A stretch of 64,000 bases of DNA, from assembly GCF_000503055.1 (NCBI RefSeq), contig NZ_AYVY01000008.1, positions 82,725-146,724 of the forward strand, written 5' to 3'. This DNA comes from Mesorhizobium sp. LSHC420B00 (GTDB taxonomy: Bacteria > Pseudomonadota > Alphaproteobacteria > Rhizobiales > Rhizobiaceae). Positions 1,668 to 64,000 of this stretch are shown here, piece after piece (position 1 is the first letter of the stretch; the number at the start of each line of letters is the position of its first letter). The notes beneath the pieces are model-generated. The model did no database searches. It saw nothing but the letters and a program-made list of their open reading frames with translations, and had not been told where the DNA came from. A program made the translations under genes and the position numbers.

Positions 1668-2060
1668 ATGGCTCGTGATCTGTTCGAAGCGGCGAAAGCC
1701 GCCATGGCCAAGGCCTATGCGCCCTATTCGAAATTTCCGGTCGGCGCGGCGTTGCGCACCGAGGACGGCCGTGTCTTCACCGGCGCCAATGTCGAGATCG
1801 CGTCCTATCCGGAGGGCTGGTGCGCCGAAACCACCGCGCTCGGCCACTACATCATGGGTGGCGGCGGCAAGATTACGGAAATCGCCGTGATCGCCGAACG
1901 CGTGGCAAAATGCTCGCCCTGCGGCGGCTGCCGGCAGCGGCTGGCTGAATTCTGCCGGCCGGAAACGAAGTTCTATCTCTGCGATGATAGCGGCGTGGTC
2001 GAGACCGTGACCATGGGCGAGTTGCTGCCATACGGCTTCCAGGGCGATGTGTTGAAATGA
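1668..2060 (+). CDS. cdd: Cytidine deaminase
   Basis: Hydrolytic deamination of cytidine and deoxycytidine to uridine and deoxyuridine, cytoplasmic, pyrimidine salvage. The 130-aa length is normal for the homotetrameric class. The zinc site is visible: Cys52-Ala-Glu54 (Cys ligand and catalytic Glu), then Pro-Cys85-Gly-Gly-Cys88. The substrate-binding N-terminal pattern YAPYSKFPVGAAL is intact. It sits directly after the nucleoside permeases and overlaps the next gene by 4 bases (ATGA), which points to one transcript for uptake plus salvage. Confidence 0.95.
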   Translation: MARDLFEAAKAAMAKAYAPYSKFPVGAALRTEDGRVFTGANVEIASYPEGWCAETTALGHYIMGGGGKITEIAVIAERVAKCSPCGGCRQRLAEFCRPETKFYLCDDSGVVETVTMGELLPYGFQGDVLK

Positions 2061-2875
2061 AGGAAGCACTCGATCACCTCGTCGAAAGGCTGGACGGGCT
2101 GGCGCCGACCACTGCGCTGGTGCTGGGATCGGGGCTTGGCGGGCTTGTCGACAAGGTCGAGGATGCGGTGCGCATTTCCTATGCCGACTTGCAGGGCTTC
2201 CCCAGAAGCGGCGTCAGCGGCCATGCCGGCGAGGTGGTGGCGGGGCTCTTTGCCGGCACGCCGGTGCTGATGCTGTCCGGTCGCGCACACTATTACGAGC
2301 ACGGCAACGCGGCGGCGATGCGGCCTGCACTCGAGGTGCTCGCCGGCCTCGGCATCTCCAGGCTGATCCTCACCAACGCCGCCGGTTCGGTCGATCCCGG
2401 GATGGGCCCGGGCTCGGTGATGCTGATCACCGACCACATCAATTTCTCAGGCTCCAACCCGCTGATCGGCGAGCCGAGCGACCGCCGCTTCGTCGGCCTG
2501 ACCGAAGCATACGACGCCGGTCTCCGCTCCGCCATCGAGCAAGCCGCGAAGGCCACCGGTACCAGGCTGCACAAGGGCGTCTACATGTGGTTCTCCGGCC
2601 CATGCTTCGAGACGCCGGCCGAGATCCGCATGGCTCGCATCATGGGCGCCAACGCGGTCGGCATGTCGACGGTGCCGGAGGTCATTCTCGCCCGCTTCCT
2701 CGGGCTGCGCGTCGCAGCCTGTTCGGTCGTCACCAACCTTGCCGCCGGCATGACCGGAGCCGAGCTGTCGCACCAGGAGACCAAGGACATGGCGCCGGTC
2801 GGCGGCGCGCGGCTGGCGACCATTCTGCAGCGTGTTTTTCAGGACGGGCTTCCGGAGCACAGGGTAGACGCCTGA
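2057..2875 (+). CDS. punA: Purine nucleoside phosphorylase
   Basis: Phosphorolysis of purine (deoxy)nucleosides to base plus (deoxy)ribose-1-phosphate. At 272 aa this is the trimeric, mammalian-like PNP class and not the shorter hexameric DeoD. Motifs seen: LGSGLGGL (phosphate loop, near residue 25), GRAHYYEHG, and TNAAGSVDPGM, followed by the GMSTVPE element of the active site. It overlaps cdd by 4 bases and deoA by 1 base (TGATG), so translation is probably coupled across all three. Confidence 0.93.
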   Translation: MKEALDHLVERLDGLAPTTALVLGSGLGGLVDKVEDAVRISYADLQGFPRSGVSGHAGEVVAGLFAGTPVLMLSGRAHYYEHGNAAAMRPALEVLAGLGISRLILTNAAGSVDPGMGPGSVMLITDHINFSGSNPLIGEPSDRRFVGLTEAYDAGLRSAIEQAAKATGTRLHKGVYMWFSGPCFETPAEIRMARIMGANAVGMSTVPEVILARFLGLRVAACSVVTNLAAGMTGAELSHQETKDMAPVGGARLATILQRVFQDGLPEHRVDA

Positions 2876-4191
2876 TGCTTCCCCAGGAAATCATCCGCCG
2901 CAAGCGCGACGGTCAAAAACTCTCGGCTGAGGAGATATCGGCTTTCATCGAGGGCCTGACCGCCCGCACCGTTACCGACGCGCAGGTCGGCGCCTTCGCC
3001 ATGGCGGTGTTCTTCAACGGTATGAGCCGCGACGAGGTGGTGGCGCTGACTATGGCGATGCGCGATTCCGGCGATGTGCTCGACTGGTCGGATCTGCCCG
3101 GCCCGGTCACCGACAAGCATTCGACGGGCGGCGTCGGCGACAATGTCTCCTTGATGCTGGCACCGATCGTCGCTGCCTGCGGCGCCTATGTGCCGATGAT
3201 TTCCGGCAGGGGCCTCGGCCATACCGGCGGCACGCTGGACAAGATGGATGCCATCCCCGGCTACATCAGCCAGCCGGATGTTGCACGCTTCCGCAAGACC
3301 GTGCTCGAAACCGGCTGCGCCATCATCGGCCAGACCGCCGACCTCGCACCCGCCGACGCCAGGCTCTACGCCATCCGCGATGTGACGGGAACGGTGGAAT
3401 CGGTGCCGCTGATCACCGCTTCGATCCTGTCGAAGAAGCTGGCGGCCGGCATCAATTCGCTGGTGCTCGACGTCAAGGTCGGCAACGGCGCTTTCATGGA
3501 GAAATCGCGCGATGCAACGGTGCTGGCCAACAGCCTGGTCGACGTCGCCAATGGCGCCGGCCTTAGGGCCTCGGCGCTGGTCACCGGCATGAACGAGCCG
3601 CTGGCGTCCGCTGCCGGCAATGCGGTCGAGGTGCGCAACGCCGTCGACTTCCTCACCGGCCGCTTCCGCGACCGGCGGCTGGAGGAAGTGACGCTGGCGC
3701 TGGCCGCCGAGATGCTGCAATCGGCAGGCCTGGTGCCGTCCAACCAGGACGGCCTGCGTCGCGCCGCCGAGACGCTGGCCGGCGGTCGCGCCGCTGCCAT
3801 CTTCGCGCGCATGGTGGCGGCACTTGGCGGTCCCGCCGATTTCATCGAGAATCCGGAAAAATATCTGCCGAAAGCGGCAACGGAATTCGCCGTCAAGGCG
3901 AGCGCGAACGGCTTTGTCACCGGCATAGCAACCCGCGAGATCGGGCTTGCCGTGGTCGGGCTTGGCGGCGGGCGGACGCGGCCGGACGACAGGATCGATC
4001 ACGCCGTCGGCGTCACCAGGCTGCTGCCGGTCGGCGCTGAAGTGCGGACCGGCGAGGCGCTGGCGCTGGTCCATGCCCGCAATGCCGGGGATGCCGAGGC
4101 GGCCGCGGCCGCCGTGCTTTCGGCCTATACGATCGGGACTTCCAAACCGGCCGCGGAGAAAACCGTCATCCGGCGGATCCTGCCGCGCTGA
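2875..4191 (+). CDS. deoA: Thymidine phosphorylase
   Basis: Reversible phosphorolysis of thymidine/deoxyuridine to base and deoxyribose-1-phosphate. At 438 aa it has the length of the NP-II family (helical domain, glycosyltransferase family 3 domain, C-terminal PYNP domain). The signature KHSTGGVGDNVSLMLAP is near residue 80, followed by GRGLGHTGGTLDKMDAIPGY. The ATG at 2875 shares its A with the punA stop, so this start is set by the overlap. Last gene of the rightward salvage operon; the next gene is convergent, 3 bases away. Confidence 0.94.
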   Translation: MLPQEIIRRKRDGQKLSAEEISAFIEGLTARTVTDAQVGAFAMAVFFNGMSRDEVVALTMAMRDSGDVLDWSDLPGPVTDKHSTGGVGDNVSLMLAPIVAACGAYVPMISGRGLGHTGGTLDKMDAIPGYISQPDVARFRKTVLETGCAIIGQTADLAPADARLYAIRDVTGTVESVPLITASILSKKLAAGINSLVLDVKVGNGAFMEKSRDATVLANSLVDVANGAGLRASALVTGMNEPLASAAGNAVEVRNAVDFLTGRFRDRRLEEVTLALAAEMLQSAGLVPSNQDGLRRAAETLAGGRAAAIFARMVAALGGPADFIENPEKYLPKAATEFAVKASANGFVTGIATREIGLAVVGLGGGRTRPDDRIDHAVGVTRLLPVGAEVRTGEALALVHARNAGDAEAAAAAVLSAYTIGTSKPAAEKTVIRRILPR

Positions 4192-14950: not shown

Positions 14951-15105
14951 GTGCAATCCTGTCTTTCGGTTTGAAATCAACAGGCAAGCGGCCATAGCCA
15001 CAAGCCTCCGCGGCGCGTTACACCACGAATTGGGGCGGCTGATAGCAGAATCAAGGGGCGCTGTCCACAGCCGATTGAGAGGCGGTGCCGATCACGAAAC
15101 GAAAA

Positions 15106-62333: not shown

Positions 62334-63296
62334 ATGACCTTCGACCTTCAGGGCAAGCGCGTTTTTGTCGCCGGGCATCGCGGCATGGTCGGCTCGGCCA
62401 TCCTGCGCAGATTGGCCGACGAGGATTGCGAGGTCCTGACCGCCTCGCGCGCCGAGCTCGATCTTCTCGACCAGGCCGGGGTGCGGCGCTGGATGGCCGA
62501 CCGCAAGCCGGATGCAGTGGTGATGGCAGCGGCCAAGGTCGGCGGTATCCTGGCCAACGACAGGCTTCCGGTCGATTTTCTGCAGGACAACCTCGTCATG
62601 CAGAACAATGTCATCGACAGCGCCTTCCGTAACGAGGTGCAGAAGCTGCTGTTTCTCGGTTCATCCTGCATCTATCCCAAATTCGCGGCGCAGCCGATCT
62701 CCGAGGACGCCTTGCTGAGCGGCCCGCTCGAACCCACCAACGAATGGTATGCGATCGCCAAGATCGCCGGACTGAAACTGTGCCAGGCCTACCGGCGCCA
62801 ATACGGTGTCGACTACATCTCGGCGATGCCGACCAATCTCTACGGCCCGGGCGACAATTTCGACCTCAATTCCAGCCATGTCGTGCCCGCTCTGATGCGC
62901 AAGGCGCACGAGGCCAGGCGCGCCGGCCGCAAGAGCCTGGAGGTGTGGGGATCGGGCACGCCGATGCGCGAATTCCTGCATGTCGACGACGCCGCCGACG
63001 CCCTGGTCTGGCTGTTGAAGAATTATGCCGGCGACAGCCACATCAATGTCGGCTCTGGGGAAGACATCACCATTGCCGACCTTGCCCGCACCATCGTGTC
63101 GGTCGCCGGCGCCGATGCCACGATCACATTCGATCCGACAAAGCCGGACGGCACGCCGCGCAAGCTGATGGACGTATCGCGCCTGTTCGCCACCGGCTGG
63201 CGCCCGCGCTACTCGCTGCGCAGCGGATTGGAACAGACCTATGCGTGGTTTCTCCAGCACGTCGAGACCGGCGATCTCCGCCTCGGCGCGGCCTGA
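62334..63296 (+). CDS. fcl: GDP-L-fucose synthase
   Basis: 320 aa, extended SDR. Converts GDP-4-keto-6-deoxy-D-mannose to GDP-L-fucose (epimerase + reductase) for surface glycans. NADP motif GHRGMVGSAI near residue 13, SSCIYPK near residue 108, catalytic Tyr-x-x-x-Lys in NEWYAIAKIAGLK. The ATG at 62334 has GGGGTGAG 3 bases upstream. The preceding enzyme gene gmd is not in the window. It is the last ordinary gene before the tRNA fragment. Confidence 0.92.
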   Translation: MTFDLQGKRVFVAGHRGMVGSAILRRLADEDCEVLTASRAELDLLDQAGVRRWMADRKPDAVVMAAAKVGGILANDRLPVDFLQDNLVMQNNVIDSAFRNEVQKLLFLGSSCIYPKFAAQPISEDALLSGPLEPTNEWYAIAKIAGLKLCQAYRRQYGVDYISAMPTNLYGPGDNFDLNSSHVVPALMRKAHEARRAGRKSLEVWGSGTPMREFLHVDDAADALVWLLKNYAGDSHINVGSGEDITIADLARTIVSVAGADATITFDPTKPDGTPRKLMDVSRLFATGWRPRYSLRSGLEQTYAWFLQHVETGDLRLGAA

Positions 63297-63387: not shown

Positions 63388-63433
63388 ATGGTGGGCGTGA
63401 CAGGGATTGAACCTGTGACCCCTGCAATGTCAA
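63388..63433 (-). tRNA. tRNA-Val(GAC) 3' half, 5' half missing (att site)
   Basis: Reading leftwards: anticodon loop TTGACAT (63427-63433, anticodon GAC), stem strand TGCAG, variable loop, T-arm ACAGG-TTCAATC-CCTGT, acceptor CACGCCC, discriminator A and CCA at 63388. The bases that should pair with TGCAG are absent: the next bases are CGCCG. D-arm and 5' acceptor are also absent. This is the usual product of integrase recombination in the 3' half of a tRNA gene. Confidence 0.85.
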
Positions 63434-63792
63434 CGGCGGAGCAATCCAACGAAACCAAGGGGAAACTCTATCAAACGCTATCACGCGCCGTCACGTGAAA
63501 CTAACGATTTTCAGGGTTTAGCATGGGGCCGCGTGTCACTTGTGTGTCACTACTCTCCCGGGAGCGACGCTCCAATGCCGAGTTCAAGGAAAAGGAGCGG
63601 TCGGGGCATCGGATCACAGAATGCTCTGCTGGCGGGCGTCGAACTTCCTCTCATGGCCATATCGGCCCTAGCATACAAAACCGCCACCCTCGGAAAAGGG
63701 CGGCGGTCAAATTGTCGGATGCTCCTTGTCAGAAGCGGTTCTATTTGTACCGCATTTCGCGTCCGACCACAACCAAAGGATCGGACCCGACC
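63434..63792. other. Start of a putative integrated element, no clear gene
   Basis: Base composition changes to AT-richer than the flanking chromosome. It holds the 8-bp direct repeat GTGTCACT at 63533-63540 and 63544-63551 and the hairpin at 63680-63707. No reading frame here looks coding. Confidence 0.55.
63680..63707 (-). terminator. Hairpin terminator-like structure in the element end
   Basis: ACCGCC-a-CCC against GGG-c-GGCGGT with an 8-base loop; reading leftwards it is followed by TTTTGTATGC. It would stop leftward transcripts coming from the element. Confidence 0.5.
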
Positions 63793-64000
63793 ATGCCTAA
63801 AGCAGTCAAACTTTCTCAATCAGCGCGACATGGGAAAAAAGCACGGAAGCCCGGAAACCCGGCGGGTTCCGGCGGGTCGGCACCTGTCCATGTCACGCTC
63901 ACAAGTAAAAAGAAAATGTCGTGTCGCACGGTTGAGAAAACACTGCATGTAAGCACCGAAGGCGATTACATCGTAGACTGTGAAACTCTGCCCACGATGG
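63793..64000 (+). CDS. Partial unknown protein, cut by window end
   Basis: ATG at 63793, open through 69 codons to the last base. N-terminus is basic (KAVKLSQSARHGKKARK), then a Gly/Pro/Ser-rich linker, then VSTEGDYIVDCETLPT. No family recognised. Codons are AT-richer than in chromosomal neighbours, in line with acquired DNA. A weak AAAGGA lies upstream. May be an unreal frame. Confidence 0.35.
   Translation, partial: MPKAVKLSQSARHGKKARKPGNPAGSGGSAPVHVTLTSKKKMSCRTVEKTLHVSTEGDYIVDCETLPTM

What the first reader, a model, noticed from the sequence alone, without database searches (positions are those of the whole stretch)
63388..64000. tRNA-Val(GAC) 3' half marks the left junction of an integrated element
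A 46-nt tRNA 3' half (anticodon loop to CCA) stands alone; its 5' half is replaced by AT-richer DNA. Tyrosine integrases recombine in this part of tRNA genes and leave one such displaced copy, while the element restores an intact gene at the far end. The element body should lie to the right, with an intact tRNA-Val(GAC) at its other end.
Basis: partly seen in the sequence, partly recalled or inferred. Interest (0 to 1): 0.65.

Follow-up and report, generated by a model that had tools for sequence, protein, structure and literature searches.

The report
Defence-gene island inserted in tRNA-Val

Summary
The observation and the prediction both hold. Window 63388-63433 is a 46-bp tRNA-Val(GAC) 3' half on the minus strand. 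The identical 46 bp recur 18,879 bp further right on the same contig as the 3' part of an intact tRNA-Val(GAC) gene. A tyrosine integrase gene runs into that tRNA. A close relative (G017) has the empty site: its unbroken locus matches the left flank at 94% and the right flank at 95%, and the two matches overlap by exactly the 46 bp.

The element is AT-richer than the chromosome (G+C 0.554 against 0.634). Its recognisable cargo is mostly defence: a C5-methyltransferase/HNH/Vsr set and a full-length Dsr1-like SIR2 protein. No conjugation gene appeared among the 22 ORFs scanned with Pfam.

Twelve of 146 genomes of the genus (Mesorhizobium), this one included, have two same-strand core copies on one contig, 2 to 119 kb apart. 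The nearest relative (integrase 87% identical) carries other defence genes; a 58% relative sits on a 119-kb element with trb-type conjugation genes.

This is a new member of a known kind: a tRNA-integrated genomic island. Interest is modest.

The parts
62334..63296 (+). GDP-L-fucose synthase gene (fcl); last chromosomal gene left of the element
   Evidence: NCBIfam GDPFucSynFcl 519.9 bits, cut-off 500; inside the stretch that matches the empty-site locus of G017 at 94%
63388..63433 (-). Displaced 3' half of tRNA-Val(GAC), the 46-bp attachment core at the left end of the element
   Evidence: 100% identical to C8:164991-165036, the 3' part of the intact tRNA
63434..64000 (.). Left end of the integrated element; the element runs on beyond the window to C8:165036 (L004:19537)
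   Evidence: Absent from the empty site in G017; G+C 0.549; L004:610-1044 is 78% identical to the left end of the related element in G096
63793..64000 (+). Start of the first gene of the element, related to a 362-aa protein at the same place in G096; here its two parts lie in different frames, so it looks broken
   Evidence: the downstream part matches PHROG 3377, HNH endonuclease (E 2.3e-8)

Best explanation
An 18.9-kb integrative element inserted by its own tyrosine integrase into the 3' end of the tRNA-Val(GAC) gene of this Mesorhizobium chromosome (the only copy that the core searches found). Recombination took place within 46 bp of identity running from the anticodon loop to CCA. The element carries its own copy of that 3' half, so the gene is rebuilt intact at the right end, where its 5' half and upstream DNA remain. 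The original 3' half is left stranded at the left end (63388-63433). The integrase, probably helped by the small HTH/excisionase-like protein, should be able to reverse the reaction by pairing the two 46-bp copies. The recognisable cargo is mostly phage defence. Shown: the two junctions, the empty site, and an open integrase frame with a family match. Inferred: that the element still excises, how it moves between cells (no conjugation gene found; mobilisation by another element or transduction), and that the defence genes work.
For: Exact 46-bp repeat, 18,879 bp apart on one contig. Intact tRNA-Val(GAC) at the right end that folds as a tRNA. Empty site in G017, with both flanks meeting in exactly 46 shared bp. 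Integrase of 390 aa with Pfam Phage_integrase (E 1.7e-13) and PHROG integrase (3.5e-38), its open frame ending inside the tRNA. Its three closest relatives in the genus, G096 (87%), G165 (58%) and G109 (57%), sit next to tRNA-Val(GAC), as do two of the next six, G114 and G006 (both 38%). Excisionase-like HTH protein. Lower G+C. Defence cargo: Dsr1 model over residues 1-1262 of 1264 (E 9.5e-158), C5-methylase, HNH restriction enzyme, Vsr.
Against: No excised circle or excision junction could be looked for (no reads). One N plus an Illumina adapter remnant lies inside the element at L004:15234-15256, between two copies of a 45-bp sequence; the join there rests on that overlap, not on a clean read-through. 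The leftmost gene looks frameshifted, so some decay is possible. A motif scan found an arginine box (ARPEAI) and the LGH...Y box in the integrase but not the HxxR box; the alignment shows YSLRH there, also in G096, G165 and G109, so it is a family trait and not a private defect. The other four of the nine best relatives are not beside tRNA-Val(GAC): G150 is beside tRNA-Val(CAC), G153 beside tRNA-Thr, G149 and G142 show no tRNA in the fetched locus. So the site preference holds only for the closest group.
Confidence: 0.97

Rival explanations
1. The fragment is an old remnant of a tRNA duplication or a gene conversion, not an integration junction.
For: In G032 two copies of the tRNA-Val gene, each matching over all 76 bases, flank a 12.3-kb segment, so whole-gene duplication does occur at this locus.
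Against: In G000 the identity stops sharply at the anticodon loop, the relative has the empty site with exactly those 46 bp shared, and an integrase gene runs into the intact copy.
Confidence: 0.01
2. The two junctions are brought together by an assembly artefact: a contig misjoined at the N/adapter inside the element.
For: N and adapter sequence at L004:15234-15256.
Against: The two pieces overlap by 45 identical bases. Left and right flanks are neighbours in G017. Related left and right ends occur together, 24.2 kb apart, on one contig of G096.
Confidence: 0.02
3. The inserted element is a decayed prophage or a phage satellite (this concerns what kind of element it is, not the insertion, so it overlaps with the best explanation).
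For: Integrase, Arc-like repressor and excisionase-like protein match phage families.
Against: No structural or packaging family among the 22 ORFs of the element compared with Pfam or the 10 compared with PHROGs; the remaining small ORFs were not compared.
Confidence: 0.1

Closest known systems
tRNA-integrated genomic islands as collected in Islander (PMC4383910; start of the abstract seen in the listings)
   Same: Tyrosine integrase; target tRNA gene split, with a displaced fragment at one end and a restored gene at the other
   Different: Nothing essential; target is tRNA-Val(GAC) and the recognisable cargo is mostly defence
   Same: Same tRNA, same 46-bp core, integrase 87% identical, related left end, same 386-aa/recombinase pair
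   Different: 24.2 kb; other defence genes (type IIG restriction-modification, HNH, PDC candidates; 6 of 9 proteins scanned matched)
119.4-kb element of G165
   Same: Same tRNA, same 46-bp length of the displaced copy, integrase 58% identical
   Different: Carries trb-type conjugation genes and a coupling protein, so ICE-like; a relaxase was not sought. Its integrase has a different tail, read from the tRNA in another frame
Symbiosis islands of rhizobia (Bradyrhizobium islands flanked by tRNA-Val: table passage of PMC11837538)
   Same: Integration at tRNA genes
   Different: 485 kb to over 1 Mb in that table; here 18.9 kb, and no symbiosis or conjugation family among the 22 ORFs scanned with Pfam

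Membership tests
tRNA-integrated genomic island (tyrosine integrase) | Displaced tRNA 3' fragment at one end, intact tRNA at the other, identical repeat | tested here: met
   46 bp, 100%
tRNA-integrated genomic island (tyrosine integrase) | Tyrosine integrase gene at the tRNA end | tested here: met
   390 aa, PF00589 E 1.7e-13; ends in the tRNA. The HxxR box reads YSLR in this subgroup
tRNA-integrated genomic island (tyrosine integrase) | Empty site in a relative | tested here: met
   G017, L007
tRNA-integrated genomic island (tyrosine integrase) | Excises as a circle | not testable with these tools
   needs reads or PCR
Integrative and conjugative element (ICE) | Relaxase, coupling protein and type IV secretion genes | tested here: not met
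   No such family among 22 likely ORFs of the element scanned with Pfam; the other ORFs were not scanned
Integrative mobilisable element (IME) | Relaxase and/or oriT used with a helper's machinery | tested here: inconclusive
   No relaxase in the scanned ORFs; oriT not searched
Dsr1 (defence-associated sirtuin 1) | Full-length match with N-terminal SIR2 domain | tested here: met
   PADLOC Dsr1 residues 1-1262, E 9.5e-158; Pfam SIR2_2; GAGVS, TTNFD and LHG motifs at 28, 120, 158 (their catalytic meaning is recalled)
Dsr1 (defence-associated sirtuin 1) | NCBIfam equivalog cut-off (1400 bits) | tested here: not met
   640 bits, aligned 1-1261 of 1263: Dsr1-like, not filed as a Dsr1 equivalog

The most novel reading that the evidence does not exclude
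The G000 and G096 elements belong to one family of defence islands at tRNA-Val(GAC) with fixed ends (integrase at one, HNH-like gene at the other) and a two-gene module (a 386-aa protein of unknown function overlapping a XerD-like tyrosine recombinase). That module would act as a second recombination system, exchanging the defence cargo beside it while the element stays in place.
Probability: 0.08. Interest if true: 0.5.

Novelty: new member of a known kind. Interest (0 to 1): 0.25.

Why it matters
It gives exact ends for a probably mobile defence island in Mesorhizobium. It also shows that one tRNA-Val(GAC) gene, between fcl and cpdR in this genome, is used repeatedly in the genus: small defence islands and a large conjugative-type element share the attachment site and related integrases. 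That makes it a practical place to look for defence genes in rhizobia and a testable case of helper mobilisation. The principle itself is well known.

Tried and rejected
Considered and rejected: chance match; tRNA duplication; misassembly; prophage (see rivals). Literature searches for tRNA-Val insertions in Mesorhizobium listed, among others, papers on Bradyrhizobium and on Mesorhizobium symbiosis ICEs. I saw listings and abstract starts, and passages of two papers (PMC11837538 on Bradyrhizobium islands, PMC11476347 on Sinorhizobium meliloti); none of what I saw described this site in Mesorhizobium. That is no proof that it is undescribed. (Dsr papers; defence hotspots in rhizobia) were seen as listings only. 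The 386-aa partner protein has only sub-threshold matches to MgsA_C and an AAA ATPase family, so its function stays open.

Caveats on my own work: in the script the two flank markers ('fcl_leftflank', 'RR_rightflank') were translated in wrong frames or taken from the wrong ORF, so they serve only as position markers, not as proteins. The gene picker is crude. 'Two copies' allows up to 3 mismatches, so more diverged copies are missed (G114 is counted there with one copy although one search shows two). The 39.7-kb and 40.3-kb segments of G067 and G102 were fetched only at their ends.

Full report
What is there. The window is G000:C8:82725-146724. Its last 613 bases hold a 46-bp stretch, 63388-63433, that reads on the minus strand from the anticodon loop of tRNA-Val(GAC) through the T arm to CCA. 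ARAGORN reports no tRNA in the window. The same 46 bp, letter for letter, lie at C8:164991-165036, as the 3' part of an intact tRNA-Val(GAC) (L004:19493-19567, minus strand) whose predicted fold is a cloverleaf (-29.6 kcal/mol, z -2.4). Spacing start to start is 18,879 bp.

Empty site. A relative, G017, has one unbroken locus (L007) with an intact tRNA-Val(GAC). Its bases 1-1934 match the window up to 63433 at 94%. Its bases 1889-3432 match the G000 DNA from the intact tRNA rightwards at 95%. The two matches overlap by exactly the 46 bp. Left of the element is fcl, and right of it, beyond the tRNA, a CpdR response-regulator gene. The element is therefore L004:613-19537, in window terms from 63388 to beyond the right edge. 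Its G+C is 0.554, against 0.634 for the window left of the fragment and 0.611 for the right flank.

How it works. The anatomy fits integrase-mediated insertion into the 3' end of a tRNA gene: the incoming element supplies a copy of the 3' half, so the gene is restored at one end, and the old 3' half is displaced to the other. The 390-aa integrase (L004:18342-19514; Pfam Phage_integrase; PHROG integrase) runs towards the tRNA, and its last 22 bases, stop codon included, lie inside the tRNA gene on the other strand. That stop is within the 46-bp core, so the C-terminus should be the same integrated or excised (inference). In G165 and G109 the integrase reads the tRNA in another frame and ends in a tail GWMVGVTGIEPVTPTMST, with a stop beyond the core; the G114 integrase also stops beyond it. 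The HxxR box of the catalytic domain reads YSLR in G000, G096, G165 and G109. A HTH protein overlapping the start of the integrase passes Pfam HTH_17 and scores just under NCBIfam's excisionase cut-off (26.0 against 28.8 bits).

Cargo. From the left end: an HNH-like gene that lies in two frames compared with G096; a 386-aa protein of unknown function overlapping a 347-aa XerD-like tyrosine recombinase; a C5 cytosine methylase, an HNH restriction enzyme and Vsr; a CoiA-like protein; a DUF6946 protein; a 1264-aa Dsr1-like SIR2 protein, which scores below the NCBIfam equivalog cut-off (640 of 1400 bits) but aligns over its whole length; an XRE-type regulator; a sub-threshold GIY-YIG match and an Arc-like repressor. 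Of the 115 ORFs of 60 aa or more on L004, 22 likely ones were compared with Pfam and none matched a relaxase or type IV secretion family. Dsr1-like sequence occurs in 15 of 146 genomes of the genus, G000 included, at E up to 1e-20; the best-scoring one outside G000 is 31% identical.

Relatives and the site. Of 146 genomes of the genus, 137 hold the tRNA core within 3 mismatches and 16 hold two copies. In 12 of those 16 the two copies are on one contig and strand: G093 2.1, G091 5.7, G062 6.9, G095 8.2, G136 10.1, G032 12.3, G074 16.9, G000 18.9, G096 24.2, G067 39.7, G102 40.3, G165 119.4 kb apart. The other four are on different contigs (G109, G006, G014) or 2.5 Mb apart in opposite orientation (G029). 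In 11 of the 12, one copy is an intact tRNA-Val(GAC) and the other matches it over only 46-65 bp; in G032 both match over 76 bp. Of the nine best integrase relatives outside G000, five sit beside tRNA-Val(GAC) (G096, G165, G109, G114, G006) and four do not (G150, G149, G142, G153). A different integrase, that of G032, has relatives in the segments of G062, G074, G095 and G136; in G067 and G102 there is only a 22-23% match to the G165 integrase, and in G091 and G093 none of the four integrases used as queries was found.

Swapped cargo. Comparing 20 ORFs of the G000 element with 22 of the G096 element, matches were the integrase (87%), the left-end gene, the 386-aa protein (66%), the recombinase (57%), the XRE-type regulator (65%) and the Arc-like protein (41%); Dsr1, the methylase and Vsr had none. 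Of nine G096 cargo proteins scanned with PADLOC, six matched: a type IIG restriction enzyme-methyltransferase, an HNH nuclease, and weaker or candidate (PDC, HEC) families; three matched nothing. Of eight G032 proteins, three gave clear matches (two C5 methylases and Vsr), one gave only weak ones and four none. Seven G165 proteins matched T4SS-DNA_transf, T2SSE (TrbB-like), CagE/TrbE, TrbL, VirB8, CagX and TrbI. The 386-aa protein occurs in 10 of 146 genomes at E up to 1e-10; in 6 of the 8 loci fetched, G000 included, the recombinase lies beside it. In G000 the pair has a higher G+C than its surroundings (about 0.60-0.65 against 0.54-0.59).

Weak points. No read data, so excision is untested. 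One N and an adapter remnant inside the element, between two copies of a 45-bp sequence, show that two assembly pieces were joined there. The overlap, the empty site and the G096 parallel make a misjoin unlikely, but the true length is probably some 67 bp shorter (inference).

Verdict. The mechanism is textbook (Islander, PMC4383910, start of abstract seen). The element is a new member of a known kind.

Noticed in passing
L004:15234-15256 (G000:C8 about 160733-160755): An N followed by an Illumina adapter remnant between two copies of a 45-bp sequence: an assembly artefact left in the contig, which makes a false protein end (QTCALPI).
   Followed up: partly
L004:2480-4604; L085, L086, L087, L088, L091: Two-gene module: a 386-aa protein of unknown function overlapping a XerD-like tyrosine recombinase; the protein is in 10 of 146 genomes of the genus and paired in 6 of 8 fetched loci.
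   Followed up: partly
L068:17623-18879, L070:17729-18985, L072:1828-3141: Related integrases take their C-terminal tail from the strand opposite the tRNA-Val gene, in different frames; in G165, G109 and G114 the stop lies beyond the 46-bp core, so excision might change the tail.
   Followed up: no
L074:2645-2720 and 14987-15062 (G032): A 12.3-kb segment with methylases and Vsr flanked by two tRNA-Val gene copies that both match over 76 bases, instead of one intact gene and one fragment.
   Followed up: partly
window 63793-64000 (into L004 about 1700): First gene of the element lies in two frames relative to its G096 relative, a sign of decay at the left end.
   Followed up: partly
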